Shown here piece by piece: positions 13,086-64,000 of a stretch of DNA of 64,000 nucleotides. Below the pieces are notes generated by a model, which did no database searches, had not been told where the DNA came from, and was given only the letters and a program-made list of their open reading frames with translations. The DNA comes from Hirudinaria manillensis (lineage: Eukaryota > Annelida > Clitellata > Hirudinida > Hirudinidae). Within the stretch, counting starts at the first letter, position 1; every line of letters begins with the position of its first letter. The translations under genes were made by a program, and so were the position numbers. The stretch lies in contig CM067536.1 in assembly GCA_034509925.1 (NCBI GenBank), positions 6,275,501-6,339,500 on the forward strand, in the 5' to 3' direction.

Positions 13086-24749
<11,664 letters not shown>

Positions 24750-42233: not shown

Positions 42234-43619
42234 ATGAATACAAGTTTGTTCGAAAATGTAAACACGTCAACGACGTTTTCAAGAAATTCAAGTTCAAACT
42301 TCTCGGTGTTTGTGACGAGGTCAGGACCTTACGTGAGAGAAATCCACTCAACCATTGGCTTCATTGCATTCTTTACCAACTTTTTGGTTATTTGCGTTTT
42401 TCTAGCTTGTAGAAAATCGCTCGGAAAACAGATGACAACAGTCAGTAGTAATTTCCACATAACTTGGCAGGTTCTTACGTTATTTGCTATGAATACACTA
42501 ATTCAATATTTGATAATATTAATTACATAATATTGCCGATTTTTAAGTAATAAATAATACTTTTATAAGTATTCCTATGCAAAAGAACTGTGAAAATTAG
42601 GAAAACTGACCTAACAGTCGCTGATCAAAGGTGAGAGGAAGCCATAGCTCCTCGTGGTGTAGAAAGTCCTTATTTTTTAAGTATTGGCAACTGCGGAAAC
42701 ATATTTAACTTAAAGTTAATTAAAAGCTTATTTATTATTTCTCAAACAGTCCTGCGTTGATGCAACAATTGGATTGATCCTCATCCTTAACATGTACTTG
42801 GAGGACGACGGAACCCCAAGGTACGTGATGGGAAACATTGGACATGAATTCGTTTGCCGACTCTGGAACAGCAAATTGATTTTGTCGTCTGCTATGGACA
42901 TGTCAGCTTTTGCAGTTCTGATGTTGAATTTTGAAAGATATTTGGCCGTGGTCCATCCAATACACCATAGAACAAAGTTTGCCAAAAACAGACGATTGTC
43001 GATGGTTATGATCGCAATCACTATCTGCGTAACAGTTATGTACAGATTATCTTTCGGTATTTTAACCTGCCGCATACTTAGCGATGGAAGATGTGCTGCC
43101 TTCATAGAAAGAATCAGTTCAACTTATCAGATGTTTATGGGAGTGTCAACCTTTCTCCTCAACTATGTCATACCTTTTTCACTCACTTTCTTCTTTTACA
43201 TCAGCATGGCCCACAAATTGCACCAAAAAATTGCACCCGAACAACAGAAAGTCAGTGAAATTGCTTGCGTAAGTTCATCGAACGGTTTTAATATTTCGGA
43301 AGAAAAGAACGCACAGAAAAACGATGCCCAAGATGGTAACTTTGACCTTGTGAAGACTAGAAACAACATACTGAGGACATCATTGCTTTTATCCATTTCA
43401 TTCATCGTTTGTTGGTCAACTAATCAGTTCTATAGATTTTTATATTACTTTGGAATGATACCTTTGGGCGAACTTATCCCTTTGTACCATTTCTCAGTTT
43501 CTATGGTGTTTGCAAACAGCTGCATCAATCCATTCATATATTGTCTCAAGTACAAACCATTTCAACAGTCCGTAAAAGGTATTTGGTTATCTCTCGTCAA
43601 GATGATTCGAAAATCTTGA
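42234..43619 (+). CDS. rhodopsin-class GPCR, subfamily A, copy A1
   Basis: Two exons, 42234-42470 and 42750-43619, joined in phase 0: 368 residues. The extracellular N-terminus has several N-x-S/T glycosylation sites. TM1 is in exon 1 (FIAFFTNFLVICVFL), TM2 is split by the intron (HITWQ|SCVDATIG), and TM3 ends LNFERYLAVVHP (E/DRY motif). TM5 holds the VIPFSL Pro. TM6 reads CWSTNQ, so the CWxP proline is missing. TM7 ends NPFIY (NPxxY). The ICL3 is long and polar, and the C-tail is short. Ligand unknown; the receptor is probably lineage-specific. Its first exon shows 'TN' where 'GN' is usual in TM1. Confidence 0.92.
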
Positions 43620-44088
43620 ATACCGGACTTATTTGTGTTTTTAGCAATTCAGTGATAAGAACATATTGGTGTTACATCAGTTGCTTTAGTTGTTGTCATA
43701 TTTGTTTGTGCTTGAGACAGAAAATTGCTTTTATTTTATGCATTTCCTATTAATTTTCCAATAATGATGCACATTGATTTGATGAATCCTAATTTAGACA
43801 AATACCCGAAAAATTCATCACACGTTGTCACGTAGCTTTAATCCATCAACTTATGCATGGTCTGAGAAAATAAATTACTCTTACTAATGGTGATTTGGCT
43901 GGTAATTGAAATTAATTGGCTGCAGTTTTGAAGCTAGACATTGCTTTATAAGATCTCCAAAATTCGTGAAGACAGTATATTAATGTGATGAATGTATTTC
44001 TCTCACAATATATTTATAATCGTTTCAGTTAAAATTTAAAAAGATTAAAATATTTATTTGACTTTAATTTAATTCTATTTAAAAAAAA
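43620..44088. other. A1-A2 intergenic and A2 promoter
   Basis: Holds the A1 3' UTR and the conserved TATA-like element of A2 at 43947-43952. Confidence 0.5.
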
Positions 44089-45446
44089 ATGAATTCTAGT
44101 TTGTTTGAAAATGTTACCACTACTGCGGTTTTACCAAGAAATTCAAACATCACGGTGTTTGCAACGTGGACGGTTCCATACATGAAGGACGTCTATGCAA
44201 CCATTGGTTTTATTGCATTCTTTGGAAATTTTTTGGTTCTTTCTGTTTTTTTAGCTTTTAGAAAGTCGCTTGGAAAACAACTGACTACAGTTAGCAGTAA
44301 CTTCCACATAACTTGGCAGGTTATAATTGCAATTATTAAGTTATGATCTGAATTAGTTCAAAGTAATTTTACAAGAAGTTTGAAATGATAGTTTTATAAA
44401 AATGTTTTCTGCATGTACATCTCTGCAAACCCCAGATTTTGTAAAAACACCTCTCTAACAAATGTTGAATAAATTTTACGCTTAAATATTTAAACAAGAG
44501 TCGATGATAAATTATGAGTTATTATTAGACAATAAAAACTCAATTAAAAGTTAATTCAATATTAATTTATCAAAAGTCCTGCGTTGATGCAACAATTGGA
44601 TTGATCCTCATCCTAAACATGCAAACGGAGGACGATGGAACTCCAAGATACGTCATGGGAAACATTGGACACGAAATCGTTTGCCGCCTCTGGAACAGCA
44701 AAGTCATTTTGTCGTCTGCCATGGACATGTCGGCTCTGGCAGTTCTGATGTTGAATTTCGAAAGATATTTGGCCGTGGTCCATCCAATACACCATAGGAC
44801 AAAGTTTGCCAAAAACAGACGATTGTCGATGGTTATGATCGCAATCACTATCTGCGTAACAGTTATGTACAGATTATCTTTCGGTATTTTAACCTGCCGC
44901 ATACTTAGCGATGGAAGATGTGCTGCCTTCATAGAAAGAATCAGTTCAACTTATCAGATGTTTATGGGAGTGTCAACCTTTCTCCTCAACTATGTCATAC
45001 CTTTTTCACTCACTTTCTTCTTTTACATCAGCATGGCCCACAAATTGCACCAAAAAATTGCACCCGAACAACAGAAAGTCAGTGAAATTGCTTGCGTAAG
45101 TTCATCGAACGGTTTTAATATTTCGGAAGAAAAGAACGCACAGAAAAACGATGCCCAAGATGGTAACTTTGACCTTGTGAAAGCTAGAAACAACATACTG
45201 AAGACATCGCTGCTTTTATCCATTTCATTCATCGTTTGCTGGTCAACTAATCAATTCTATAGGATTTTATATTACTTCGGAGTGATATCTTTGGGTGGAC
45301 ACCTTTCTTTATACTATTTCTCAGTGTCTATGGTATTTGCAAACAGCTGTATCAATCCATTCATATATTGTCTCAAGTACAAGCCATTCCAACACTCGGT
45401 GAAGTGTATCTGGTTATCTCTGATGAAGATGATACGAAAATCGTGA
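44089..45446 (+). CDS. rhodopsin-class GPCR, subfamily A, copy A2
   Basis: Exons 44089-44319 and 44577-45446, phase 0, 366 residues. Same layout as A1: glycosylated N-terminus, TM1 with the usual GN (FFGNFLVLSVFL), ERY after TM3, CWSTNQ in TM6 (no CWxP proline) and NPFIY in TM7. From TM4 through ICL3 it is identical at the nucleotide level to A1 (44799-45181 against 42972-43354), while intron and flanks differ strongly. Confidence 0.92.
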
Positions 45447-46649
45447 ATACACAATTAAACTGTGCTTGTACCAATTCAATAAGAACATCTTCGTGTTACA
45501 TCAGTTGCTTTTGACGATATCATTGTTGTTATTTTTTTTCTGTGTTTCTGGCAGAAAATTGCTTGTAATTTCAAGGAAATAGTGGAATTTCGAGGGAAAT
45601 CCTAATTTGGAATTTTGTTGATTATCCTATCAGCTAAATTGTATTAGATTCTTTTTAAAAAATTAAAAGATAATGTCATTAATATTCATATAAATAAATC
45701 TGATTACAATTCAATTTGTCAAATTTACCAAAAATTCATTTTATAATTTTTTTTTTGATGAAACTCCATGAATTTTGTTCCGTTTATTTTAATTTCACTT
45801 ATTACACGATTTAAAATATTTTCAAACAATAAAGAAATACTAAACTGCTCAATTTGTCATGTTCCTTTCGACGGTCATAGAATCATCCGAAATAATTATT
45901 TAATTAATTTTAACAATGGAATGGAGAAGTAACAAGACGGACGACAAAAGCTCCCCAAAAGCTACGTGACCAATTAACATGATCCACCTAATTGGATCCC
46001 AATTTGAGTATAAATTTGAAATGATTTATTGCTTGCATTAAAAGATTTTCTAAAGTTTATTAATCTTTAATGTTGACTTTCTTAATCGGTTGGTTTAACT
46101 TTTTTGCCGCATTTGATGTCAACGTATTTTATCATTATTAATGAAGAATAAACTTTTGACATGATCTTGGAAATTTTAAAATAAAATGTCTATTATGTTT
46201 CAAAGTTTTAAGTAAAGTGATTGCAAGTGATTAAACACTGTTTAATTCATTTAACTTCATGAGTTTAGCAAGGAGCTAATAAAATAGTTTTATTATAAAT
46301 TTTAAAAAGTGAACATGCCGGATTTTTTTGAAGCAAACAAATATAGTGAAAATGTTAAAATATCGCAAAATATTATGTGAAAATATTATATTCATTATAT
46401 GGCAAGCGAATTACCCTAGGAAAACATTGAGATTTTAGGTTATTAACAATTGGTATAAACGTATAAAAACCTATTTCAAAACAAAATAGCTTTAAAATAT
46501 TTGGGAATGTGACATTTGTTGGGGTGAAATATGTAAAAAAAAAATTACTTCTACCGAATAAATACATATGTTCGAGAAACAGTTATTTAGGCTATAGACG
46601 TAGTTCAAAATAATCTGAAAATATACAAAATATTCATCGCCAGGTTGAA
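45447..46649. other. A2-B1 intergenic and B-type promoter block
   Basis: No coding exon. 45889-46022 is a conserved block (CGTGACCAATTAACATG, then a TATAAATTT) repeated almost perfectly at 62386-62519 and less well at about 56545-56690. Confidence 0.5.
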
Positions 46650-47832
46650 ATGAATTGTTGCATGGTCAATTCATCAGTTCAGTTCTTAAACTTTTCAACT
46701 TCCAATTTAACCACTTTCAACTTCACCTTCGTTCCGCAAGTCACTTCGTGGGAAGTCAAGCTGTCTTATAACATTATGGGGGTCATTGGGTTCATTCTGA
46801 ACTCTTTTGTTGCTGGTGTTTTCGTGGCATTTGGGAATTTAAATCAAAAACAGGGCACCACCTCCAGCAGTAACTTCCTCATCTTCATGCAGGTTCGGAA
46901 GTGTTATTATTTTTATTATAAACTTTGATATTAGAAGCCTTAGAAGCGCTTGAAGTTTGACCCAAATTGGGGCCAAAATTGTTGTAATTATTTAATCTGA
47001 GTAATTGTATTCCATTTCTTAAATAAATTTTAAGGCCTGTGTCGATGGAGTTGTTGCACTTCTGCTCGTTTTGAACACGGACATCGAAGATGACGGAAGC
47101 AAGAAATTAACTTCTGGAAACTTTATAGACGAACTGTTGTGTCGCTTGTGGTACAACAAGACTATTCAGGTTGTGGGTTTGTATGTTTCCATCTGTTCCA
47201 TTCTCACATTGAATTTTGAAAGATACCTGGCCGTGGTTTATCCCATCTTCCACAAGGCCAAATTCGTGCAGACTAGGACCTATTCGGTGGTGATGTTCGT
47301 TACTTCATTGGCTTTAGGATTTGCTTATCAAATTCCGTATGGCATTTTGACGTCAACAGTTTCCGCGAATGGTAGGTGCTCCCCTTATTCAATCAATATG
47401 AGCAAAGGCTTTAAAGAGTCTGTAGGGATGCTTGCATTTGCTTTTGAATATTTATGTCCACTTGGTTTCAATATATTCCTGTATTTGAGTATGGCTATCC
47501 AGTTGCACCATAAAATTAAGCCTCAAAGCTCGTACGAAAGTTCCTCGGATGATGGTATCGACATGGTAAGGGCAAGAAACAATGTTTTGAAAACTAGTCT
47601 TTTGTTGACCGTTTTCTTCATTTTGTGTTGGAGTCCTTATCAGTTTTGTCGCATTTTGTACTTCTTTGATCGTGTTTCTCTTATCAGCATTGCACAATTC
47701 TTCAACTTCACTGTTTTTATGGTCCATTCAAATTGTTGCGTCAATCCCTGCATTTATTTCTTCAAATACAAACCATTTCACAAATGTGCCAAAGAATTTC
47801 TGATCAAATTGAAATCGTTCTTTAAACGATGA
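46650..47832 (+). CDS. rhodopsin-class GPCR, subfamily B, copy B1
   Basis: Exons 46650-46892 and 47035-47832, phase 0, 346 residues. The N-terminus has several N-x-S/T sites. TM1 reads VIGFILNSFVAGVFV. The intron falls at the same place as in subfamily A (IFMQ|ACVDGVV). TM3 ends LNFERYLAVVYP. TM6 keeps the canonical CWSPYQ and TM7 ends NPCIY. ICL3 is shorter than in A. This is the only fully intact B receptor in the window. Confidence 0.92.
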
Positions 47833-49416
47833 TTACCAGCTGCTTTAAATGTCGCCCGCCTCCTCAATTAGGGACTTAGCGTCAAGACTATTAAATAACA
47901 TTATTTATTCACATATGTTTGAATGTCAAATTTGATTTTAATGCTAAAAAATTTTTCGGACTTAAAATTGAAATTGAACTTTCAGTAAGACACTTTTACG
48001 AATGTTTCAAATGAAGATAAAGCCATTAAATTTCTCAAAATGAACAATTATTGTGTTGCTAATTAAAATAGAATCTTCTGAAATCGTGATCGTATTTTGT
48101 ATTTTTAGCTTTTAAATAAAGAAATAAAAAGAAATATTTTCATTGTCAGAGTCTCAAAAGGTTTTGTTTTCTGCTTTGTCTTTAATTTTCTGTTGCTTCA
48201 ATTAAAGACGACTAATTAACAGAAGCACAATGGCTGATAGCCTTAAATTTAAATTTGAAATTTTTTTATTAAAACGTGGTCTTCACAGAAAAAATGTTAA
48301 CCCACAAGCGGGTAATTAGACGACCTTTGAACCTTTTACTTAATAAATTAAGTGGATAAGCTGACTAATAAACAAACAAGAGTAATAACACCGAAGTCGA
48401 GAATAGTAACAGAGCTCAAAATAAATTCTCATCCGAAGATAAAGCTGCATTTTTGTGTTTATACCTGCTTAAGAAATCCTATGTAAGCTATTCGGAAGTG
48501 GAGCAATATTGTGAGTCCGAGAGGAATGAAACATTCGAGAATTACTGGGAAACTTTCACTGAATTTTTCGTAACCTACGCTTAGACAGGAAAAGAAAATC
48601 CTACACTATTTCACTACTTGAGATTCTAGAAGATATGATTGTTGACGATGTTCAGGCAAAGGATACTGGATAAATGATGATCGAGTATTTCCTCGTCTGT
48701 GAAAACTTCACCTTGTGAAATATTGATTGGACGACTGACATGTTCCTTTCAAAGTTGAGAGCCAAGAGTGAGAAGGTTGATGTGGTTAAAACAGTACAAG
48801 CAGTTAAAACAGTACCATTTTAAATATGAGCTCCTAAAAGAAACTGAATCTCACATAAACAGGTATGGTGTCACTATTTGTTACATGTGGTATTTGTGGT
48901 TAGCAGAAGCAGAGCCATTGTTGCATATTTGCAGCCCTGAATTGGTTCAGTTTTTTTTTATTTAATTAACTTTTACTTTATTTTAAAATTACTTGAAAAA
49001 TATTGCATATTAATTAATGACATTTTAGGTAACCAGGCGAAAGTAGAACTCATTTGCAATATCTTGACGACATTTGGTGACATCTGGTGACTATTTAAAT
49101 ATCGAAGTGCTTAAAGACGAGATAAATATACTTATTTAGAAGTTTATCTTATTACTAGAAATAAAAGATACCTCTCCATGAGACGAAAATCTCCTAACCT
49201 GTCAATAACTGTGGAAAGGGCAGCTAGCAGTGGTTTATCAAACCAAGAAAATCTGAAAGTTTATTGCCCAATGTGCTCTTATAGTTGCATAAATAATAAG
49301 GTATTGTTTTAGCGATTACAGTTCAAGCGAAACATGATAATATGAAAAATGTAAATTGGCGAAAGCCAGGTCATTTCATAAAACAGTTGGTATTCCACTG
49401 CAGCGCTGAGATTTAA
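47833..49416. other. B1 3' flank with antisense receptor relic
   Basis: The block around 48055-48150 (ATCTTCTGAAATCGTGATCGTATTTTG) recurs at about 50470, 57485 and 63290. The antisense relic inside this interval is listed separately. Confidence 0.5.
48430..48800 (-). pseudogene. antisense type C GPCR relic 1
   Basis: The sequence parallels 57785-58480 and, in part, the minus-strand receptor at 63623. The stretch around TM3 (complement of CTTTCAAAGTTGAGAGCCA) and around TM5 is recognisable. The ICL3-to-C-terminus portion is missing, and the reading frames are broken. Confidence 0.6.
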
Positions 49417-50241
49417 ATGCCTCTTCACAACGTCAGGAGAATGGTGACCGCAAACAGGTTTAAAATAAGTCAACCGCTCGTTTTGAACACGGACATCGAA
49501 GATGACGGAAGCAAGAAATTAACTTCTGGAAACTTTATAGACGAACTGCTGTGTCGCTTGTGGTACAGCAAGACTATTCAGATTGTGAGTTTATATGTTT
49601 CCATCTGTTCCATTCTCACATTGAATTTCGAAAGATACCTGGCCGTGGTTTATCCCATCTTCCACAAGGCCAAATTCGTGCAGACTAGGACCTATTCGGT
49701 GGTGATGTTCGTTGCTTCATTGGCTTTAGGATTTGCTTATCAAATTCCGTATGGCATTTTGACGTCCACAATTTCCGCGAATGGTAGGTGCTCCCCTTAT
49801 TCGATCAATATGAGTAAAGGCTTTAAAGAGTCCGTAGGGATGCTTGCATTTGCTTTTGAATATTTGTGTCCACTTGGTTTCAATATATTCCTGTATTTGA
49901 GTATGGCCATCCAGCTGCACCATAAAATCAGGCCTCAAAGCTCCTACGAAAGTTCCTCGGATGGTATCGACATGGTAAGGGCAAGAAACAATGTATTGAA
50001 AACTAGTCTTTTGTTGACTGTTTTCTTCATTTTGTGTTGGAGTCCTTATCAGTTTTGTCGCATTTTGTACTTCTTTGATAGGGTTTCTCTTAGCAGCATT
50101 ATGCAATTTTTCAGCTTCAGTATTTTTATGGTCCATTCAAATTGTTGCGTCAATCCCTGCATTTATTTCTTCAAATACAAACCATTTCATAAATGTGCCA
50201 AGGAATTTCTGATCAAATTGAAATCGCTCTTCAGACGATGA
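49417..50241 (+). pseudogene. rhodopsin-class GPCR, subfamily B, copy B2, 5'-truncated
   Basis: From about 49480 (LVLNTDIEDDG) to the stop at 50241 this is a close copy of B1 exon 2 with an intact frame: ERY, CWSPYQ, NPCIY. Upstream of that point the sequence is unrelated: TM1, intracellular loop 1 and the first half of TM2, including the conserved Asp of CVD, are gone, and no exon 1 was found between 47833 and 49417. An ATG at 49417 is in frame but would begin an unrelated 24-residue leader. It is probably a recent 5'-truncated pseudogene; a six-helix product is possible but unlikely to signal. Confidence 0.8.
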
Positions 50242-51778
50242 TTATCAGCTGTTCTAAATGCCAATAGTGGCAAGTAGATACTTATCGTCAAAACTGTCGA
50301 ATAATATGATTTATTCACGTAATTTGATTGTTAAATTTGATTTTATTGTTAAAACATTTTGCGAACTTAAAATTTGTTTGAAATTCAACTTTTAGTGAAA
50401 TACTTTAATGAATGCATAAAATATCGTCGTCAAATTTCCTGAAGTGGGCAATTATTGCGAGGCCCATTAAAATCGAATCTTCTGAAATCGTGATCGTATT
50501 TTAGTTTTTAGTCATTAAACAGAGAAATAAAAAAAATATTTTCATTGTCTTAAAAGTTTTAGGCCTCTTCTGTGTCATTCATTTTCCGTTGATTCAATTA
50601 GGTACGACTAATTAGCAGAAGCACAGTGGTGAATCGCTTTAAATTTAACATTGATTTTTTGTTAAAATGCAGTCTTCACAGAAAAACTGTTGACCCAAAA
50701 TCAAGTGATTAGACCATCTTTGAACCACTTAATTTATTATTTTTAACAACAACCATAATAACACAGAAACAGCGAATAATAACCGACCTCAAAATACATT
50801 CGCATCCGAAGATAGACTGCATTTTTGTGTTTATACCTGTTGGAGAAGTCCTATGTAAACCACGCGAAAATGGAACAAAATTGTGGGTCCCAGAGGAATG
50901 AAACATTCGAGAATTACTGGGAAACTTCCCATGAATTATTCGTAAGCTACGCTTGGTCAATAAAAGGATAATACTATACTTTTCCATTCATTGAAATTTT
51001 AGGTGAAATTAATGTCGATTGTCTTTTGAGACCTTTGTTCAGGCAAAGGATGATTGTTAGAACGATGATCGAATATTTCCTCGCCCACGAAAACTTTACC
51101 TTGTGAAATATTGGCTGGACGACTACCTTTCAAAGTTGAGGGCCAAGACTAAGAAGGTTGACGTGGTCAGGGCAGCCCAAAGAACCACTTCAAATATGAC
51201 AAAAGAGTTCCTAAAAAAAATGAATCTAACATAGACAGATATGATGTCACTGTCTCTGTTAAATTCGTGGTTAGCAGAAGTAGGGCCACTGTTGCTTCCA
51301 TGCAGCTCTGAAATGATTAATTATTTTTATTTAACTAACTTTTATTTTATTTGTAAATTACTTTATAAGTACTGCATATTAATTAATGGCATTTTAAGTA
51401 ACCAAGCGAAAATAGAACTTATATGGAATATCTTTACCGCATCTGGTGACAACTTAAATATCGAAGTGTTTAATTTCAAAGCTGAGATAAGTAGACTTAA
51501 TTAGATTTTTATCTTATTAGTGGAAATAAAATACACCTCTACACGAGGTGAAAATCTCCTAAAATTCCAAGAAATGTGGACGGTGCCTCTAGCAGTTCTG
51601 AAGTGGAGCATCAAAGCAAAGTATGTAGAAGGGGACCGCATTTTGAACGGGTATAAACTAAAAAACTCAAAAAATCTTAAATGTTTTTAAATGATGTGGC
51701 TTCAGTGAAAATTACAGTTCAGGCAAAATATGTTAATATGGAAAGTATAATAAGGCGAAATGAAGATCATTTCAACAA
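50242..51778. other. B2 3' flank with antisense receptor relic
   Basis: Duplicate of the 47833-49300 interval, with its relic listed separately. Confidence 0.5.
50780..51200 (-). pseudogene. antisense type C GPCR relic 2
   Basis: Matches relic 1 over most of its length, for example AGAGGAATGAAACATTCGAG and the TM3-adjacent CTTTCAAAGTTGAG block. Frames are broken and the same C-terminal portion is missing, so the deletion predates the duplication of the B block. Confidence 0.6.
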
Positions 51779-51943
<165 letters not shown>

Positions 51944-52083
51944 TTATTTATACGGTTCCATTTGTATGTCGACATTCTTTTTAAGATCGTTTCAGGATTA
52001 AATAAAATGAGATGATATGTAGTATTAATACCATCACAATTTCTCATTATATTTATATTTATTATAATTATTTCCACAATTTA

Positions 52084-52301
52084 GATGGAGACCTTTTACA
52101 AGATCTGCTGCTTGATAAAGAGTGTCGATTCCAACGAGATCGAGATGCTGCCATTGAAGATGGAAGTTGGAGAAAGACTGACTAGCCTCCCATGGCATTG
52201 AAAGGGGAGTTGGTCTTCACCCCTGACCATGACAACCTCGGTGACGTGGTTACGGTTCTGCTGGAGTCGATAGAGGTGGAAAGAAGAAACACGTTTTTAG
52301 A
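52084..52301 (+). pseudogene. degenerate copy of the TRIM last exon
   Basis: Starts after TTTAG with ATGGAGACCTTTTACAAGA, like the true exon (39766). It keeps GTCGATTCCAACGA, GAACTGGTC-type and GGTGACGTGGT blocks, but has an internal deletion (the LVGLKELPEG region) that causes a frameshift and stop. The TGA of the true exon reads AGA. The 3' UTR match continues to about 52640. No other TRIM exon accompanies it. Confidence 0.85.
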
Positions 52302-53326
52302 TTTTTGTTTCTTTTGCTATTGGTGCTCTATCGAGTTGTTTTCAGTTACAAAGTGTTTTTCATTTATGCATACCTCATCTGGATTTCAAACGATTACTTG
52401 AAACGACAACCTCCGCAATTGTGGTATTTTGTTTTTGAAAGAAAAAATAGCGCTCTTTTTGCAATAATTCAATTTAGTATTGAAAGATATAAAAAGTAAA
52501 TTTTCGTCTTAAGGATTTGGTGAATATCTATAAATATAGATGATAACGAAGGAATGTCTATTCCTTGTCTTAGTGAATTAATTTTACAGTTGATACATTG
52601 CAGATGGTTTGCTTTGCTCACAAAAACAGACATTGACCACATTTCAGTTTATGTTCGCCATAATATAAAGCAGAATATGCTGAAACTGTTATTGCTATCA
52701 GACAGTTAAGACGTACCGATATTAACGCATCATAAGTAATAAATAAAATAATAGGACAAAATATAATAATAAATATAATATATATAATATTCTCACTTGT
52801 TATGTGCTATCACTATTTGGATGCAGAGGTGAAAATATCTAGTTAAGCCACTTTTCAAGTTTCTACTAAAAATACTGAGCTATCTCTGGCCTGCCGAGAT
52901 ATGAACTGGCGAACCAAAGCCGCACATTTCGTCTTAAATGTTTCCATTTTTATCTAACATCATTTCAGAATAAGCCCGGTCAAGAAAACATTTCTCTTAG
53001 TCCATTTTGACCATAACAGAAATGTCGATTTAGAAACAAATGTAAGGTAATGCATGAAAAAAATAAAGATCTCAAGAGAACAGTACATTATCCATCGATA
53101 AATTTGGTTTTCGTCAAATAATCTACTAGTGATTTACGTTGATTTGTCGAGTCCTAATTTAGACAAATAGGTGTAAAATTTAGCAACCGTTGTCACGTAA
53201 TAACATTTCATCAACTTCTTTGTCTGAGCAAATATATCAGACTTATTAGTGGCAAAAATTTAGAAGCCAGGAGTTTCGCTATTAATAAAAATTAATTGGC
53301 ATTAATTTAAAAACCGGGCATTGCCT

Positions 53327-53332
53327 TATAAG
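53327..53332 (+). promoter_or_regulatory. TATA-like element of A3
   Basis: TTGCCTTATAAGAT, 141 bp before the A3 ATG, preceded by ATTAATTGGCATTAAT as in the other A promoters. Confidence 0.55.
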
Positions 53333-53467
53333 ATATTGCAGAAGTTGCCGAAGATAGAATATTATCGTGAAGAAAATATACTTTTCACGCAAGAGTTTGA
53401 CTGCTTATGTTAACGTTTACATTGATTAAAATATCAATTATATCTTCGCCAAATCATAACTCAAAGA

Positions 53468-55009
53468 ATGAACTCCAATTGGAATAGAAATAATAACACT
53501 TCTGTGGCATCTCCGAAGAATTCAAGTTCCTCAAACATTACGGTATTTGTGACGTGGTCAATACCTTACGTGAGAGATATACACGCCACCATGGGTTTCT
53601 TTACACTTTTAAACAACTTTTTGGTAGTATGCGTTTTTCTAGCTTTTAGAAAATCGCTCGGAAAGCAGATGACAACAGTTAGCAGTAATTTCCACATAAC
53701 TTGGCAGGTGCTTAGAATTTTTGAATTTCTTGATATTAATTTGTTGATATTGTTTATAATAAATATTTTATAATATTAACCATATAACTTATAACTAACC
53801 TTATACATTCACCGTGGCCAATCTAGTGAAAAGCCATGGTATAGAAAGAACATTTTTATAATTTGGGCGAACATATCTACTGACAGACTTACAGATATTA
53901 ACCTTTGAGAGGAATATCTTATTAATTAATTAGTAACATTTTACTATACTTCGATTCTTCTAAAATTATTTTACTTCAATATTCTACAAGTTATTTCCCA
54001 TACACATGGCAAAGTTCAAAATCCGTCATCTTACTCAATCATTAAATGTGAAAGAATATTAAGTTAACGGAAACTTTAATCTTAATTCGTTGAATTACTT
54101 TATAAGTTGTTAATTTAGAATTCATTAAAAGTCTGTTCATTATTTCTCAAACAGTCTTGCGTTGATGCAACAATTGGATTGATCCTCATCCTTAACAAGT
54201 TCTTTGAAGCTGACGGAACTCCGAAGTACGCGATGGGAAACATTGGACATGAATTCATTTGCCGGCTCTGGAACAGCAACACGATTTTGTGGTGTTCCTT
54301 GGACGTATCCGCTCTGGCAGTTGTGTTGTTGAATTTCGAAAGATATATGGCAGTGGTCCATCCAATACATCATAGGACAAAGTTTGCCAAAAACAGACGA
54401 TTGTCATTGGTTATGGTCTCATTCACTGTTTGTCTAGCTGTTACGCATAGATTCTCTAATGGCATTTTAACCTGCCGCATACTTAGTGATGGAAGATGTG
54501 CTCTCTTTATCGACGAAGTTAGTTCTACATATCAGATGTTCATGGGAGTGTCGGCCTTTCTTCTCAACTATGTCATACCAATCTCTCTCACTTTCTTCTT
54601 TTACATCAGCATGGCCCTCAAGTTGCATCGAAAAATTGTTCCCGAGCAACGGAAAGTCAGTGAAGTTTCCTATGTAACTGCTTTGAGCGATTCTAAAGAA
54701 AAGAAAGCACAGAAAAACGATGCCCAAGACACCAACTTTGACCATGTGAAGACTAGAAACAACATACTGAAGACATCGCTGCTTTTATCATTTTCATTCA
54801 TTATTTGTTGGTCAACTAATCAGTTTTATAGGATGTTATTTTTCTGTGGAGTGATACCTTTGGGTGACCTCAACGCTTTTTACCATTTCTCAATCTTTAT
54901 GTTATTTGCAAACAGCTTCATCAATCCATTCATTTATTGTATCAAGTACAAACCCTTCCAGCAGTCCTTGAAGGCCATCTGGTTCTCTTTGACCAAGATG
55001 ATTCGCTAG
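53468..55009 (+). CDS. rhodopsin-class GPCR, subfamily A, copy A3
   Basis: Exons 53468-53707 and 54155-55009, phase 0, 364 residues. N-glycosylation sites lie in the N-terminus. TM1 reads FFTLLNNFLVVCVFL, TM3 ends LNFERYMAVVHP, TM6 is IICWSTNQ (no CWxP proline) and TM7 is NPFIY. It is more diverged from A1/A2 than they are from each other, and closer to A4 in TM3-TM4 (LSLVMVSFTVC). ICL3 is five residues shorter than in A1. Confidence 0.92.
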
Positions 55010-55266
55010 TCATGAACATGTGGACGATTATGTCTGTAGCAATAGGATGATGAGGGGCTACACGTTAGATCAATAGCCGTGTTTACGCTTTCAATGTTTT
55101 GGTTTTTCTGATAGAAAATTTCTTGTAGTATCAAATAGCTGCATTATAGGGGAAATTTCGATTTTATTGATGCTCCAATTTCTGCTAACGTTACGAGTTT
55201 TATTATTATACTAATTCCCTCATTTAACACAAAAAAACTGAAAAGAGCAGCAAAAAAAAAAAAATA

Positions 55267-56309: not shown

Positions 56310-56937
56310 GTATTATATTATATGTTGTATACATCAAAATACAATTATATGTTCATTGAAATATGTTAAAATGATCGTCTGGTTATAATTAGATTTAACA
56401 AAATATTATTTTTTTAGTCATTTTTAATTAACTATATATTGATCTGGTATTTTAATTTCAATTATTAAACGATTTAAAATGTTTCTAAACAATAAAGAAA
56501 CACAATACAGCTTAATTGTTCATATTTCTTTCGACCTTCTAAAAAATATCCGAAATAATTACTTAATTAATGTAGCAATGAAATTAAGAAGTAACAAAAG
56601 GACTGCCGAAGCTCCTCAAAGCGACGTGACCAATTAACATGTTCCATTTAATTCTAATTAAATCCTAATTTGAGTATAAAATTCAAATGATTCATTGCAT
56701 GCAGTAAAAGATTTTTAAGAGTTTATTAATTTTTATCGTTGACTTTCTTAACCGGTTGGTTTAACTTTTTATCAACATTTGATATGAATTTATCGTCATT
56801 ATTTAGGAAAAACTTTTGAAATGATCCTGAAAATTGTAAAATATAATGTTTAATTTGTTGCAATGTTTTCGATATATTAACTTTTTTAAGGAAACTCTCG
56901 GGATGTAATACCACGTGGTGACACTATATTCCAGTAA
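56310..56937. other. B-type promoter block without its gene
   Basis: Similar to 45780-46300, including GCGACGTGACCAATTAACATG at about 56620. It runs directly into the relic below because exon 1 and most of exon 2 have been deleted. Confidence 0.55.
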
Positions 56938-57258
56938 ATGGCTGTTCAACTGCATCATAAAATCAAGCCTCAAAGCTCCTATGAAAGTTTCTCGGATGAT
57001 GTTATCGACATGATAAGGGCAGGAAACAATGTTCTGAAAACTAGTCTATTGCTGACTATTTCTTTTATTTTGAGTTCGAATCTTTATCAATTTCGTCGCA
57101 TTTTGATAGTGTTTCTCTTATTGCACAAAGTTAATATTCTTTAATGGTCCATTTAAATTAATGCGTCAATCCCTGCATTTACATCTTCAAATACAAACCA
57201 TTTCATAGATGCCAACGAATTTCCGATAAAATTGAAGTCTCTCTTCAGACAATGGTGA
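56938..57258 (+). pseudogene. subfamily B GPCR relic, copy B3 (TM5 end to C-terminus)
   Basis: Matches B1 from the end of TM5 (MAVQLHHKIKPQSSYES) through ICL3 and TM6, with frameshifts. CWSP is replaced by SSNL, and the TM7 region (NPCI) is in another frame. It is non-functional. Confidence 0.85.
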
Positions 57259-57784
57259 CAAATTGATTTGATTATTTGCAGTCACTGGCATTTAGATACC
57301 TATAGGCAAGATGATCAAATAACTTTATTTATTCCTACAATTTGATTATATTCTTAAATAAATTTGTGAACATGAAATTTGATTGAACTTCAAATTTCAT
57401 TGAGATACTTTCAAGAATGTTTCAAATGGAGGTAACGTCATTGAATCTCCCTAAATGAGCAATTATTGTGATGCTAATTAAAATGGAATCTTCTGAAATC
57501 ATGATAGTATTTTTGTTTTTAGCTTTTAAATACAGAAATAAAAAAAATCAATTTCATTGTCAGCGTCTGAAAAGCTTTCGTGCTCTCCTTTGTCTTTCAT
57601 TTTCTGTTAATTCAATTAAATAAGACTAATTAGCAGAAAAACGTAGTTTTCACATAGAAAACTGTAAACCAAAAAGTAGTTGGTTAGTTGAACTTTGAAC
57701 CTATAAAATGAATAAACAAACAAATAAACAAAATAAAGAAATTACGAATAATTACCGTCCTTAGAGCACATTCTCGCACGAAGA

Positions 57785-58480
57785 TAAACTTGAAATTCTG
57801 CGTTTTCTAATAATGTTATCGAAGCTCCTTTAAAACGGTTTGTATTTAAGACAATAAATGGCTTGATTCAAAACTTCTATAAAATCGGAGAATTTAGCGA
57901 TTGCCATTCCGAATTGGTACATGGTATGTACATGGTATATGAATTGGTACACCCAATTTGGAGATCAGCATATAATGCAAGCGGCCGATAAAAGGGCAAA
58001 GATTAATAAAACTTTATTTTGTGCTCTGAGCATTTCTTGTTTGGAAGCTTTTCCTCTTCTTTCTTTGACCCAGGGTCCTATATCTGATTTACTGAACTGA
58101 TAGTGATGGATTTTCAGAGTCGTGTTAATACATGTTGAAGAGATCCTATGATGGAGTTTGTATTATGAGTGAGGAGAATGAAATAATCGAGTTTTATCGA
58201 GAAACTACCAATGAATTTTTTGTACTCTATGCTTGAACAATAATAAAACTATACTTATCCATCCATTGAAATTTTTGATGAAATGATTGTCGATTGTCTT
58301 TTGGACCTTTGTTCAGGGAAAGGATACTGGCTAGAATGATGATCGAATATTTCCTCGTCTGAGGAAACTTCACTTTATGAAATATTGGCTGGACAACTGT
58401 CACATACCTATCAAAGTTGAGAGCCAGGACTGAAAAGATTGATGTGGTCATTTTATTGATTCATATTCGACAAAAGATAT
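57785..58480 (-). pseudogene. antisense type C GPCR relic 3
   Basis: Read on the minus strand: TM3 with LALNFDRYVTVVQP (DRY motif) at about 58380-58450, TM4, broken TM5 (58150-58250), ICL3 (58000-58100) and remnants of TM6-TM7 (57840-57960). Several frameshifts. It keeps the C-terminal half that relics 1 and 2 lack, and parallels the partial gene at 63623. Confidence 0.75.
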
Positions 58481-58954
58481 CGTAAAATAACCTGAATTTC
58501 CTTTACACGGGTGTGATGTCACTGTCTGCTAAATTTGTAATTAGCGTAAATAGAGCCACTACTGAGTCTCTGCAGCCCTGTTTAATTTAGTTTTTTTATT
58601 TAATTAACTTTTCTTTTCTTTTTAAATTACTTGATAAGTATTTCAATATTATTATATTGCATCATCTATTAAATTCATGTATATAATTGGTCGTTGAAAG
58701 AGAAACTTCAACTGATTGTCGATAGGTGTTGATAAATTGAGTCGTTGGATGTCATTTTGTCAAAGATTTAACCAGTAATAAATTTTTAGAATTGACCACC
58801 AATCATACAAAATATTTGTTTTACAAATTCGAAATTAATAATTCCAGGAAATATTTATTTAGCACTTAACTTAGTCTGTAATTTTAATTTTCCACAAGAT
58901 GATCTGAATTGTGAGAAATACACTATATTATTACTAACCAATTTATTTTAATTT

Positions 58955-59195
58955 ATTTTTTTACATCAGAATGGCTATCAAATTTTACAAAAGAAATTGC
59001 TCCCGAACAACGAAAAGTCAGTTGAAGTTGCTTGTTTTTGTAAATTTGTGAGCGATTGTAGAAGTTGAAAAGAAATGAACTCGCAGAAAAAAAAGCTCAA
59101 TATGCTAAATTCGATCACTTAAAAACTTAAACATAACACTTAAAAGCCCACTGCTTTTATCCATTTCATTCATCTTTTTTTTTTGTAACCTCATA
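58955..59195 (+). pseudogene. subfamily A GPCR relic (TM5 to TM6)
   Basis: Begins in sequence matching TTTTACATCAGCATGGC of the intact A genes and continues through ICL3 (AGAAATTGCTCCCGAACAAC, AAAGTCAGT) to the start of TM6 (CTGCTTTTATCCATTTC). It then breaks off into sequence resembling the TRIM 3' flank. Frames are disrupted. Confidence 0.75.
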
Positions 59196-60328
59196 TCGAT
59201 TTGAACACGGCGATGTTATAAAATGATTGTAGCAGGGATCCAATGATTTTCTTTGAGACCACGTTGTGGTCTTGTGCTTTTGAAAGAAGATGATTGAAAA
59301 TTTAATGCTTTCCAAAACGTTAATTCAATTTAGTAATTAAAAATGTAAAAAGTTGATGTTTGTCCTTAGGATTTTGTGAATATCGATAAAATATAGCTGA
59401 TAATGCAAGGAATGTCCGATACCTGTCTTGGTCAATTTTACAGATGATATGCTTTGTTCACATGAACATTTATTTAGCAAATCAAATTTCGGTTTGTGTC
59501 TGCTACAATATGCACCAGACTACATTGAAGCTTTTAAAATTATTAGACCGGTAATAAAAAACACCAAACGACATAACAATACATAATCATAAGTGCGTAA
59601 TACCGGTAATGTCTCACTTGCTATGTGATATCGAAGCAATGATACAAAGATACAAAAATAGGGTATTATCTGCCATAAGAAATATGGCACTTTCAAGTCC
59701 CTAGTGAAAGTGCTGAGCTATCTCTGGCCTGACCTACCAAGGTTGAATATTTCATCTGAAAGGCTTTCACTTTGACCTAACATCATTTCAGAATATGCCC
59801 TTAAACATTACCTTTAGTCTATTTTGTCTATAACAGAAATGACAATTTAGAAACCATAATAAGACAATACATGAACAAAATTTAAGTATTCAAGAAACCA
59901 GCACTTGCTGAGTAAATTTAGATGTGATTTTTGTGATCATCGGCCAAAAATTCCGACCGTTTTTCAAAAATATTCCGCTAATGATGCACATTGATTTGTC
60001 GAGTCCTAATTTAAACAAATAGGTGAAAATTCGGCATTCGCTGTCACGTAACATTATTTCATCAACTTCTTTGTCTGAAAAAAATATAACAGACTCATTA
60101 ATTTAGCCATTTGGCTTAAAATTAATTGGCAGTAATTTTAGAAGCCAGGCATTGCCTTATAATATCTCTCAAAAATTGCTCAAGTTAAAATATAATTGTG
60201 GAGAAAATATACCTTTCATACCAGATTTTGATCGCTTCAGTTAATATCTAAAAAAGTTAAAAATTAAAAAAGTTAAACTATAAACTACAAAAGGACAACT
60301 ACATCATCGCCAAATCACAACTCAGAGA
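59196..60328. other. TRIM-3'-flank-like block and A4 promoter
   Basis: Parallels 40440-42230 and 52430-53460. The A4 TATA-like element is at 60158-60163 with ATTAATTGGCAGTAAT at 60121. Confidence 0.55.
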
Positions 60329-61836
60329 ATGAACTCCAGTTTGTATGGAAATGATACTACTTCTGTGGGATCTCCGAAAGATTCAAGTTCCTCAAACATT
60401 ACGGTATTTGTGACGTTCTCAGGATCTTACGTGAGAGAAATACACGCAATCATGGGTTTCATTACATTCTTAAACAACTTCTTCGTTGTATGCGTTTTTC
60501 TGGCTTTTAGAAAATCGCTTGGAAAACAGATGACAACAGTTAGCAGTAATTTCCACATAACTTGGCAGGTCCTTAAAGTTATTAATTTATAAATTAAATT
60601 TCATAATAATAATTAGTTAGTATTGATAATAATAAATATATAATCTATATACGTTTTTATAAGTATTCTTATATATGCATTGAAAACAAATTTTTCAACT
60701 TGGAGACTGGGAGTCAAAACCAAGGAGTTTAACATATACAAATAACTTTCCATATCCTGTTTATCAGTCAAATTATTTTACCTCAATATTACTCTTCAAG
60801 TTATTTCCCATACACCTGGCAAAGTTCAAAATCCGTCAGTGTACTTGATCATTAGATGCGAAATAATATATTTGTTTGCATAGATTATGCCTCACCCGTT
60901 GAATTACTTTGTAAGTTGTTAATTCGAAGTTAGTTAAAAGTTTATTTATTATTTCTCCAACAGTCCTGCGTTGATGCATCAATTGGATTGATCCTCATCC
61001 TTAACAAGTTCTTGTTAATCGACGGTGCCCCAAGGTACGTGATGGGAAACATCGGACATGAATTCATTTGCCGTCTCTGGAACAGCAACACGTTTTTGTG
61101 GTGTTCCTTGGACTTATCCGCTCTGGCAGTTGTGTTGTTGAATTTCGAAAGATATATGGCCGTGGTCCATCCATTACATCACAGGACAAAATTCGCCAAA
61201 AACAGACGTTTGTCTTTGGTTATGGTTTCATTCACTGTTTGTCTAGCTGTTGTGTATAGATTCTCTAACGGTATATTAACCTGCCGCATACTTAGTGATG
61301 GAAGATGTGCTGCCTTTATCGATTTAGTAAGTTCTACGTACCAGATGTTCATGGGAGTGTCGACTTTTCTCCTCAATTATGTCATACCATTCTCTCTCAC
61401 TTTCTTCTTTTACATCAGCATGGCCATCAAATTACATAAAAAAATTGCACCCGATCAACAGAAAGTCAGTGAAATTTCCCACGTAAGTTCTTTGAGCGAT
61501 TCTAACAATTCGGAAGAAATGAACGCACAGAAAAACGATACCCAAGTTGCTAACTTTGATCTCGTGAAGACTAGAAACAACATACTGAAGACATCGCTGC
61601 TTTTATCCATTTCCTTCATCGTTTGCTGGTCAGCTAGCCACTTCTATAGGATTTTATATTACTTTGGAGTGATACCTTTGGGCGGACTCATCCCTTTGTA
61701 CCACTTCTCACTCTTTATGTTGTTTGCGAACAGCTGTGTTAACCCGTTCATTTATTGTTTCAAGTACAAACCCTTCCAACAGTCCGTGAAGGCAATGTGG
61801 ATCTCTCTGATGAAAGTTCTCTCAAAACGAAGATGA
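60329..61836 (+). CDS. rhodopsin-class GPCR, subfamily A, copy A4
   Basis: Exons 60329-60568 and 60964-61836, phase 0, 370 residues. N-terminal glycosylation sites are present. TM1 reads FITFLNNFFVVCVFL and TM3 ends LNFERYMAVVHP. TM6 is IVCWSASHFYR, again lacking the CWxP proline but with Ala-Ser where the other A genes have Thr-Asn. TM7 is NPFIY. The C-tail ends in basic residues (SKRR). Confidence 0.92.
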
Positions 61837-62178
61837 TTCGTTGGAATTCTTGGACGAATTATGGTTGTAACTTGATGATGAGGACGTCTTCACATTAGAT
61901 TAGTCGCTTTTGACGGTATTTTTATGCTTTCAATGTTTTTGTGTATCTGGCATAAAATTGTTTGTAATTACATGAGAACTTATAATTTGGATTTTGTCAG
62001 TTATCCTATCTACACTGTAGTTAGGTAATATGTTACATAACTCACAATATAACCGATAGCCATTATAATATTTTACTTTTATCTAATTAGACAAATTTAT
62101 CATACATTATTTCTTATTGTTTTTTTAAACATTATGCATTTTATTTCGGTTATTTTCAATTTCAATTATTAAACTTCT
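61837..62178. other. A4 3' flank
   Basis: No gene seen. It ends where the LINE fragment begins. Confidence 0.5.
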
Positions 62179-62281
62179 TAAGACTGACCCTATGAGTTTA
62201 TTTTGTATTTTAAGTTTAATTTGTTTCGTTGGTGTACATAATTGTTTGTTCAATTGTTTGTTCAATAAACTCTAAACTCTC

Positions 62282-62305
<24 letters not shown>
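62179..62305 (+). mobile_element. LINE 3' end fragment with poly(A) tail
   Basis: Starts CTTAAGACTGACCC (the distal arm of the stem-loop), continues through AATAAACTCTAAACTCTC and ends in about 24 A. Over about 100 bp it is essentially identical to the reverse complement of 17205-17310. The empty site is visible in the B1 flank (45800-45825) and the B3 flank (56460-56485), where ATTAAACGATTTAAAAT is uninterrupted. Confidence 0.93.
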
Positions 62306-62312
<7 letters not shown>

Positions 62313-62689
62313 ATAATTCCAAACAATAAGGAAATACAAAACAGCTTAATTTATCATGTTCCTTATGACCTTCGAAGACATATCTGAAATAATTATTTAA
62401 TTAATTTTAACAATGGAATGGAGAAGTAACAAGACGGACGACAAAAGCTCCCCAAAAGCTACGTGACCAATTAACATGATCCATCTAATTGGATCCCAAT
62501 TTGAGTATAAATTTGAAATAATTTATTGTATACATTAAAAGACATTTTTGGAGTTTAATTATTTTTAATGCTGGCTCCCGTTACCGGTTGGTTTAAATTT
62601 TTAGTTACATTTCATGTCTCCTCACCGGTATAATACTGGTAAAAAAAAACATTTTAAATTAAAAAATAAAATGTTTATTCTGTTGCAGC
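62306..62689 (+). repeat. B-type promoter block, near-identical to 45889-46022
   Basis: 62386-62519 differs from 45889-46022 at about one position. The downstream receptor is dead (see below). Confidence 0.8.
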
Positions 62690-63035
62690 GCTTTCTAAAT
62701 ATGAGCAAAGGCTTTAAAGAGAATGGAGGGATGTAGTCTTTGACAATTATTGATGTTTGCTTTTGATTATTTATGTCCATGTGGCGGGAAACAATGTTTT
62801 GAAAACCAGTTTTTGTTGACTGTTTTTTTCATTTTTATATTGGAATCCTTGCCAATATCGTTGCATTCTTTGATCTTTGATCGTGTTTACTTATTAGTTT
62901 TGCACAAGTTTTCAATTTAATTATTTTTATTGTCCATTCAGATTTTTGCTTCATTCTTCTCATTTGTTTCTTCAAATACATCCTATTTCATAAACGCGCC
63001 AAGGAATATCTGAACCAATTCTGACCAAATTGAAA
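62690..63035 (+). pseudogene. subfamily B GPCR relic, copy B4
   Basis: Recognisable pieces of B1 exon 2 run from the TM4-TM5 loop (MSKGFKE) to the C-terminus (FKY, FHKRAKEYL), with deletions, frameshifts and stops. Exon 1 and TM2-TM4 are missing. Confidence 0.85.
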
Positions 63036-63622
63036 TTGCTTTTTAGACATTTGTTTTGAATGTTTGCCACTGCTGGCATCTTCAAACTTATCGCCAAGAC
63101 GATTAGATGATTTTATTTAAATTATTTATTCATTCCTGAGAACAAAATTTAATTTGTTTGTTAACAAAATCTTTTCTGAAGTTAAAATTTTTCAACATTT
63201 TTAGTTTTAACTTTTACGTATTATTCAGTGGTAGTCAACGCCAATAAATCTCCCAAAATTAGCAATTATTGTGATGTTAATTAAAATCGAATCTTCTGAA
63301 ATCATGATCCTATTTTGTATTTTTAGCTTTTAAATAAAGAAATTAAAAAAAAATATTTTCATTGTCAGCGTCTCAGAAGCTTTCGTGCTCTCCTTTGTCT
63401 TTCATTTTCTGTTGATTCAATTAAATAAGACTAATTAGCAGAAGCACAGTGGGAAATCGTTTGAAATTTAAAGTTGGACGACTCAATTTTGCTGAAACGT
63501 AGTCTTCACAGAAAAAAAAACTGTTGACCCAAAACAAAGCTTGGGATTTTACCATTGAACCATTGAAATGGATAAACAATCAAACATAATAACACAAAAA
63601 TAACCGACCTCGAAACACATTG
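63036..63622. other. 3' flank between B4 relic and antisense receptor
   Basis: Shares the conserved flank block (AATCTTCTGAAATCATGATC at about 63290) with the other B units. No gene. Confidence 0.5.
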
Positions 63623-64000
63623 TCATCCAAAGGTCGATCTGCATTTTCTAACCATGTTCTCGACGCTCTTTTGAAACGGTTTGTACTTGAGACAGTAGAT
63701 GGCAGGATTGAAGCAGCAGTTCAGAAAGACCATAAGAACAGAGAAATGATAAAATGCGGTCCCTAGACTTGCTATTCCAAATTGGTACATGGTATAGTAC
63801 ACCTGATTTGGAGACCAGCATGTAATGAAAGCTGCCGATAAAAGGGCCGAGGTTTTTAGGACGTTATTTCGTGCTCTGAGCATTTCTTGTTTGGAAGAAT
63901 CTTCCTCCTCTTTCTTTGATCCAGCATCCAATGTGTGGTTTATTGAACTGACAGAGATGGATTTCTTCTGAGTGATGTTTAGACCTGATGGAGAAATCCT
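63623..64000 (-). CDS. rhodopsin-class GPCR, type C, C-terminal part (runs off window)
   Basis: The minus-strand frame is open from the window edge to the stop at 63623, giving about 125 residues: the polar ICL3 (with N-x-T and KKEEEDSS), the conserved ARNNVLKTS entry to TM6, CWSPNQVYY (CWxP kept), TM7 with NPAIY, then KYKPFQKSV and a basic C-tail. It is clearly related to the A and B receptors but distinct, and the only unbroken representative of the antisense type seen here. The 5' part lies beyond 64000. Confidence 0.85.
   Translation of the reverse strand, partial: RISPSGLNITQKKSISVSSINHTLDAGSKKEEEDSSKQEMLRARNNVLKTSALLSAAFITCWSPNQVYYTMYQFGIASLGTAFYHFSVLMVFLNCCFNPAIYCLKYKPFQKSVENMVRKCRSTFG

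What the first reader, a model, noticed from the sequence alone, without database searches (positions are those of the whole stretch)
42234..64000. Alternating A/B/C GPCR array built from compound duplication blocks
Order: A1, A2, B1(+antisense C relic), B2(+C relic), A3, LINE, B3 relic(+C relic), A relic, A4, LINE end, B4 relic(+partial C gene). A and B genes are plus strand, C is always minus. Each B is followed by an inverted C at similar distance, so B+C duplicated as one unit. A genes carry TRIM 3' sequence upstream. All A genes are intact while most B and C copies are decayed, which suggests different selection on the three types.
Basis: partly seen in the sequence, partly recalled or inferred. 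Interest (0 to 1): 0.75.

Follow-up and report, generated by a model that had tools for sequence, protein, structure and literature searches.

The report
Leech receptor gene cluster, still reshuffling
In a leech genome, a cluster of related cell-surface receptor genes has grown by copying a three-gene block, lost some copies and patched others from their neighbours; this is a clear new example of an ordinary way in which such gene families evolve.

Summary
The array is real: all 11 listed elements are at the stated places. It is a cluster of two-exon class A (rhodopsin-like) GPCR genes in a genome matching the leech Hirudinaria manillensis. Corrections: (1) the 'partial C' is an intact gene cut by the window end; (2) the cluster runs ~25 kb further, with one D and four F genes, minus strand, intact; (3) the copied block is TRIM 3' end-A-B-C, not only B+C; (4) B2 has no exon 1, so B1 is the only complete B; (5) 'different selection on A, B and C' is not supported: dead copies share deletions (B3/B4 ~1.2 kb; C1/C2 325 bp), so few losses are independent, and 4/5 intact A versus 2/8 intact B+C gives P = 0.10. 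A1 and A2 share a 383-bp identical tract (dS 0) between stretches with dS 0.3-0.8; B1/B2 exon 2 and the F genes look homogenised or mosaic; B1 and B4 share a 98-bp identical noncoding tract. An assembly artefact is unlikely. Most likely birth-and-death evolution plus gene conversion in an orphan, possibly chemosensory, receptor family: a new member of a known kind.

The parts
36823..40041 (+). TRIM-type gene (RING frame 36823-37746, B-box frame 38052-38456, 3' part to about 40041; exact ends not worked out), left neighbour and source of the TRIM 3' copies
   Evidence: Pfam zf-RING_UBOX 4.4e-9 and zf-B_box 1.3e-5; 39738-40041 matches 52057-52327
42234..43619 (+). A1, intact two-exon class A GPCR, exons 42234-42470 and 42750-43619, 368 aa
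   Evidence: Pfam 7tm_1 1.6e-21
42972..43354 (+). 383-bp tract identical to A2 44799-45181 (gene conversion)
   Evidence: exon 2 only: 0 of 5000 random placements as long; dS 0 in tract, 0.79 in exon 1, 0.32 just before, 0.63 after
44089..45446 (+). A2, intact, exons 44089-44319 and 44577-45446, 366 aa
45889..45986 (+). 98-bp noncoding tract upstream of B1 identical to 62386-62483 upstream of the B4 relic
   Evidence: 0 of 20000 random placements
46650..47832 (+). B1, intact, exons 46650-46892 and 47035-47832, 346 aa; the only complete B
   Evidence: Pfam 7tm_1 7.2e-28; exon 1 single-copy in 113.5 kb by blastn
48442..49232 (-). C relic 1, with frameshifts and stops; 325-bp deletion shared with relic 2
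   Evidence: lesion counts are rough because that alignment runs through the intron
49476..50241 (+). B2, 5'-truncated copy: exon 2 only, frame open, TM1 and part of TM2 missing
   Evidence: tandem-copy junction 47064/49476
50811..51599 (-). C relic 2, same 325-bp deletion as relic 1
52057..52534 (+). TRIM 3' fragment in front of A3
   Evidence: two matches to 39738-40041 and 40375-40584, both 74%
53468..55009 (+). A3, intact, exons 53468-53707 and 54155-55009, 364 aa
55260..56291 (-). young LINE fragment between A3 and the B3 relic
   Evidence: 27 of 39 other listed matches 98-99% identical; Pfam RVT_1 8.9e-6, below its curated cut-off
56448..57260 (+). B3 relic with its upstream region; ~1.2-kb deletion removed exon 1 and half of exon 2
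   Evidence: deletion junction shared with B4 relic; 2 frameshifts and 2 stops
57788..58802 (-). C relic 3; does not share the 325-bp deletion
58952..59181 (+). A relic, part of exon 2 only
   Evidence: 69-73% to A1-A4; 5 frameshifts
59269..59414 (+). remnant of TRIM 3' end (downstream part) in front of A4
   Evidence: 73% to 40464-40608
60329..61836 (+). A4, intact, exons 60329-60568 and 60964-61836, 370 aa
62177..62306 (+). LINE 3' end with poly-A, 5'-truncated insertion
   Evidence: 39 other matches listed (capped), 95-100%
62307..63048 (+). B4 relic with its upstream region; same ~1.2-kb deletion as B3 relic
   Evidence: 4 frameshifts
63623..64000 (-). C4, intact two-exon GPCR cut by the window end (exon 2 63623-64477, exon 1 64739-64978 in continued coordinates)

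Best explanation
This is the left part of a ~47-kb cluster of an orphan class A GPCR family in a leech genome (matches Hirudinaria manillensis). Inferred starting order: TRIM, A, B on the plus strand, then C, D, F on the minus strand, so that B and C face each other. Unequal exchange then copied the block TRIM3'-A-B-C (giving units 2 and 3) and smaller pieces (A1/A2; B+C as one 2.4-kb unit; F1-F4). Some copies died; the B ancestor of units 2 and 3 and the C ancestor of unit 1's two relics died before they were copied again. Survivors are under purifying selection, and ectopic gene conversion or unequal crossing-over exchanges stretches between neighbours, mostly in exon 2 (TM2-TM7). Shown: block homology, shared lesions, conversion tracts, omega well below 1. 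Inferred: order of events, and the role as surface receptors for ligands that vary, perhaps chemosensory.
For: Block alignments; TRIM 3' copies before A3 and A4; A3+A4 sister in exon 1 (500/500), first part of exon 2 (500/500) and tract (487/500); B3/B4 shared deletion junction and C1/C2 shared 325-bp deletion; 383-bp A1/A2 tract, dS 0 versus 0.79, 0.32 and 0.63 around it; B1/B2 fourfold sites 7/82 different versus spacer 124/564, P = 0.003; F2/F4 alike in exon 2 and unlike from the intron outward, F1/F2 the reverse; protein tree puts plus-strand A+B together at 0.98, with the minus-strand C, D and F outside.
Against: Segment trees conflict: A3+A4 is only 321/500 in the 5' flank and 45/500 in the last part of exon 2, where A4+A8 has 395/500; A2+A8 has 338/500 in exon 1; the C body groups C1 with C4 in 450/500, against B1+B2 in 471, 477 and 400/500 in three other BC segments. 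B3 and B4 are less alike (75-76%) than either is to B1 (79-82%) upstream and in exon 2, so their sisterhood rests on the shared junction and the four-taxon trees; conversion could also have spread the deletion. D groups with genes of another cluster on C3 at 0.962, and the node that joins F to that group has 0.331, so the minus-strand arm is not one clade. B1/B2 have no single long identical run (84 bp, 2419/5000) and the F2/F4 exon contrast is modest (P = 0.026, uncorrected). No expression or ligand data; no second leech genome to date the events.
Confidence: 0.85

Rival explanations
1. B and C are being lost because selection on them is relaxed while A is kept.
For: 4 of 5 A copies intact versus 2 of 8 B and C copies.
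Against: Fisher P = 0.10; lesions are shared, so copies are not independent; C4, D and F1-F4, the minus-strand relatives, are intact; B1/B2 exon 2 has omega 0.19.
Confidence: 0.1
2. Copies are haplotypes or misjoins left in the assembly.
For: A1/A2 share 383 identical bases; F units are about 95% identical over 6.7 kb.
Against: The identical A1/A2 tract is flanked on both sides by stretches that drop below 90% identity; A/B/C units differ by private LINE insertions, deletions and mostly 18-30% divergence; no N in the stretch; the matching paper reports HiFi reads of mean 18.73 kb.
Confidence: 0.04
3. The identical A1/A2 stretch reflects very strong constraint, not conversion.
For: Exon 2 is under purifying selection (omega 0.14-0.29).
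Against: 0 of 78 synonymous sites differ in the tract, while the pair A1-A4 differs at 68 of 182 synonymous sites across exon 2; A1-A3 and A1-A4 are only 0.82-0.84 identical over the same stretch.
Confidence: 0.02
4. B2, although it lacks TM1, is a working gene kept by selection (a shortened receptor-like protein from an ATG at 49417).
For: Frame open for 274 aa; omega 0.19; if the B2 branch were neutral and the B1 branch at omega 0.25 (my assumption), about 47 replacement changes are expected against 15 seen, P = 2e-8.
Against: Conversion from B1 gives the same pattern, and synonymous divergence is below flank divergence, which constraint on the protein does not explain; TM1, exon 1 and the splice acceptor are gone.
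Confidence: 0.1

Closest known systems
Mammalian chemosensory GPCR clusters (V1R, OR): birth-and-death with gene conversion (PMC2644715, search listing and start of abstract only; the rest recalled)
   Same: Tandem GPCR clusters with intact and dead copies, duplication, deletion and conversion
   Different: This is a leech; genes have a conserved phase-0 intron after TM1; far fewer copies; no evidence of sensory expression
Cephalopod GPCR expansions (PMC6408891, passages)
   Same: Lophotrochozoan tandem GPCR clusters of lineage-specific copies
   Different: There expression data and positive-selection tests exist; here no expression data, omega 0.08-0.51
Nematode chemoreceptor families (NEMCH; PMC11526382, passages)
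   Same: Lineage-restricted rhodopsin-superfamily receptors (arrays: recalled)
   Different: Over 1,300 genes in C. elegans there; here 12 full genes of the window's family (11 in the cluster, one on another contig) and two more distant clusters

Membership tests
Class A (rhodopsin-like) GPCR, Pfam PF00001 | 7tm_1 profile match above curated cut-off | tested here: met
   A1 77.4 bits, B1 98.2 bits, cut-off 30.5 (2 of 12 full proteins scanned); exons of the others also match in the genome search
Class A (rhodopsin-like) GPCR, Pfam PF00001 | N1.50, D2.50, E/DRY, CW in TM6, NPxxY, TM3-ECL2 cysteines (motifs and numbering recalled) | tested here: met
   N49, D83, ERY141-143, CW300-301, NPxIY339-343, C115 and C194 invariant in A1, B1, C4 and F1, the 4 of 12 proteins aligned; the proline after CW is absent in A1 and F1
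A named class A subfamily (amine, peptide, opsin and so on) | clear best match to one receptor family | tested here: inconclusive
   Only solved structures were searched: single-sequence best E 5.7e-10 to muscarinic M3, profile best 6e-17 to apelin receptor, then angiotensin, muscarinic, bombesin; no family stands out
Chemosensory receptor family | expression in sensory cells and response to external cues | not testable with these tools
   no expression or ligand data
Gene cluster evolving by birth-and-death with gene conversion | tandem copies, intact and dead; converted tracts between paralogues | tested here: met
Collapsed or misjoined haplotypes | copies nearly identical throughout, gaps or N between them | tested here: not met
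   (A/B/C units; the F units are closer, about 87-95%); read depth not tested

The most novel reading that the evidence does not exclude
An annelid-restricted clan of class A GPCRs (this cluster, one copy on contig C8, two more distant clusters on C3) is a leech GPCR chemoreceptor family, in which frequent conversion keeps TM2-TM7 (exon 2) alike among neighbours while exon 1 (N-terminus and TM1) diverges, giving hybrid receptors with new specificities.
Probability: 0.15. Interest if true: 0.6.

Novelty: new member of a known kind. Interest (0 to 1): 0.3.

Why it matters
Annelid genomes are reported to hold homologues of insect IRs and GRs but apparently none of mammalian ORs, and the physiology of annelid chemical sensing is called scarcely known (PMC6223215, passages). 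A small, fast-turning GPCR cluster in a leech is a concrete set of candidates, if it proves sensory. It also shows why decayed-copy counts in tandem arrays must be corrected for shared lesions and conversion before selection is inferred.

Tried and rejected
Different selection on A, B and C: rejected as unsupported (shared lesions; P = 0.10). B+C as the only unit: replaced by TRIM3'-A-B-C. Variable-first-exon sharing (B1 exon 1 spliced to B2 exon 2): rejected, B2 has lost the acceptor and the start of exon 2. LINE-mediated copying: not supported; the two insertions do not match each other, and both have near-identical copies elsewhere, hence are probably younger than the blocks. A8 on C8 as a retrocopy: rejected, it keeps the intron and ~230-290 bp of upstream homology. 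Maximum-likelihood trees of the segments timed out; distance trees with 500 bootstraps were used instead. The cluster near C3 6.3 Mb was not put into the protein tree, only three genes from C3 13.15 Mb. No structure prediction was run. The organism name rests on matching assembly figures, not on a sequence comparison.
Full report
SETTING. The window is C11:6275501-6339500 of a 148,429,096-bp genome in 23 contigs. The mitochondrial contig C23 is 15,581 bp with, on one strand and read with code 5, cox1, cox2, cox3, nad6, cytb, then (after a masked stretch) nad4, nad1, nad3, nad2 (gene names are mine from the translations), which is the annelid order as I recall it. The published Hirudinaria manillensis assembly has 13 chromosomes, 9 debris scaffolds and a mitochondrial genome of 15,581 bp, 148.59 Mb in scaffolds, HiFi reads of mean 18.73 kb (PMC10671345, passages and section 3.1 whole). 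13+9+1 = 23 and the mitochondrial length match exactly; the total differs by about 0.1%. I take the organism to be this leech.

ANATOMY. Coordinates past 64000 continue the window's numbering. Plus strand: A1 42234-43619, A2 44089-45446, B1 46650-47832, A3 53468-55009, A4 60329-61836. Minus strand: C4 63623-64978, D 66302-67544, F1 75739-77274, F2 79336-80880, F3 83455-84999, F4 87571-89311. These 11, and a further A-type gene A8 on contig C8, are open two-exon genes with the intron at the same place, phase 0, between ...Q and (S/A/T)C(V/I)D (12 of 12). Dead or cut copies: C relics at 48.4-49.2, 50.8-51.6 and 57.8-58.8 kb, B2 (exon 2 only), B3 and B4 relics, one A relic. A genome search with A1 exon 2 listed 35 matches; beyond this cluster they are A8 (74%), 13 weaker matches on C3, 12 of them near 6.31-6.32 and 13.15-13.16 Mb, and one each on C7 and C5 (clusters read).

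WHAT THE PROTEINS ARE. A1 and B1 match Pfam 7tm_1 over the cut-off. Hallmark residues are invariant in the four proteins aligned of twelve. No named subfamily stands out among solved structures. They are orphan class A GPCRs.

BLOCK DUPLICATION. A3's and A4's upstream regions and first exons align over 1.4 kb (69%), and both upstream regions hold pieces of the TRIM 3' end: 52057-52534 matches TRIM 39738-40584 at 74% in two pieces, 59269-59414 matches 40464-40608 at 73%; A2 and A8 have only the proximal flank of roughly 230-290 bp. Upstream regions of B1, B3 and B4 are alike at 75-82% and the B-C spacers at 72-78%. So the unit is TRIM3'-A-B-C. B2+C2 is a tandem copy of B1+C1 whose left junction cuts B exon 2 (47064/49476). 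In a protein tree of 15 sequences A and B group at 0.98, with C, D and F outside; D groups with three genes of another cluster on C3 at 0.962, and the remaining node has 0.331. My inference: the 'inverted C' is the innermost gene of a minus-strand arm, and the facing pair B-C is the boundary between the arms; the minus-strand genes are not one clade.

SHARED LESIONS. B3 and B4 relics align to each other straight across the point where about 1.2 kb is missing relative to B1 (from about 46.2 to 47.4 kb): most simply one event before the copying, though conversion could have spread it, and B3 and B4 are overall less alike (75-76%) than either is to B1 (79-82%). C1 and C2 relics both jump from 63647 to 63973 in C4 coordinates, and both lack 64002-64011; C3 shares neither gap. 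Three dead C copies thus reflect about two deaths, and three broken B copies about two events. The intact fraction, 4/5 A versus 2/8 B+C, is not significant even when copies are treated as independent (P = 0.10).

SELECTION. Nei-Gojobori values: A genes, 10 of 10 pairs, exon 2 omega 0.14-0.29, exon 1 0.17-0.51; B1-B2 exon 2 0.19; F genes, 4 of 6 pairs examined, exon 2 0.08-0.30. C4 against D, A1 and B1 is saturated for dS in exon 2. Nothing sets A apart.

GENE CONVERSION AND MOSAICS. A1/A2: 383 identical bases in exon 2, 0 of 5000 random placements as long; dS 0.79 in exon 1, 0.32 before, 0 within, 0.63 after. None of the other nine A pairs has such a run; the lowest tail among them is A2-A4, 154/5000, uncorrected. 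B1/B2: exon 2 about 95% identical, 3' spacer 78%; fourfold sites 7/82 versus spacer 124/564, P = 0.003, whereas in A3-A4 fourfold divergence in exon 2 (19/85) is no lower than flank divergence (65/315), though in their exon 1 it is lower (4/30); B1/B2 have no single long run (84 bp, 2419/5000). B1 and B4 upstream: 98 identical noncoding bases, 0 of 20000, with one partner a dead gene. F genes: F2/F4 windows are 90-99% alike in exon 2 and 53-77% from the intron outward; F1/F2 are 92-100% from the 5' half of exon 2 to the 5' flank and 77-96% 3' of it. Segment trees disagree accordingly, so one gene tree would mislead.

ARTEFACT CHECK. No N in 113.5 kb. A/B/C units mostly differ by 18-30%, by private LINE insertions and by deletions. 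HiFi reads of the reported length would span several units. Read depth could not be tested.

LITERATURE. Searches listed no paper on this array or on GPCR clusters in leeches (I saw titles and abstract starts of 15 of 160, 15 of 53, 12 of 43, 12 of 26 and 9 of 9 papers; only open-licence papers are held). In PMC10087013 'protein-coupled' does not occur and in PMC10671345 'receptor' does not occur in the main text. Other leech and annelid papers were seen as passages only: PMC10887747, PMC10494388, PMC11371463.

VERDICT. A well-read observation of a real, ordinary process. The selection claim falls; conversion, the longer cluster and the intact C are added.

Noticed in passing
genome C9:3026446-3027786 (L008): At least 2.87 kb, 99.7% identical to the mitochondrial cox1-cox2 region, lies inside a chromosome: a recent nuclear mitochondrial insert or a misjoin.
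   Followed up: partly
genome C3:13267648, 13283753, 13299865: Three LINE matches of equal length and identity spaced ~16.1 kb apart suggest a 16-kb tandem repeat on C3.
   Followed up: no
L013-L016 (C3 6.31-6.33 and 13.15-13.16 Mb): Two further tandem clusters of distant relatives; near 6.3 Mb the coding region is split by more introns, near 13.15 Mb TM1 to about TM6 lie in one open frame.
   Followed up: partly
L007 (C8:2056001-2066000): The dispersed A-type gene A8 lies amid repeated unrelated open frames.
   Followed up: no
51780-51942: Long TAA microsatellite at the end of the second B-C unit.
   Followed up: no
17191-17313 and 18542-19024: Another copy of the LINE 3' end, minus strand, and nearby a minus-strand frame that reads like a LINE protein to me but has no Pfam match.
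   Followed up: no
42471, 44320, 53708, 60569: Splice donors of A1-A4 look weak (GTTCTT, GTTATA, GTGCTT, GTCCTT), unlike the GTAAGA of the F genes.
   Followed up: no
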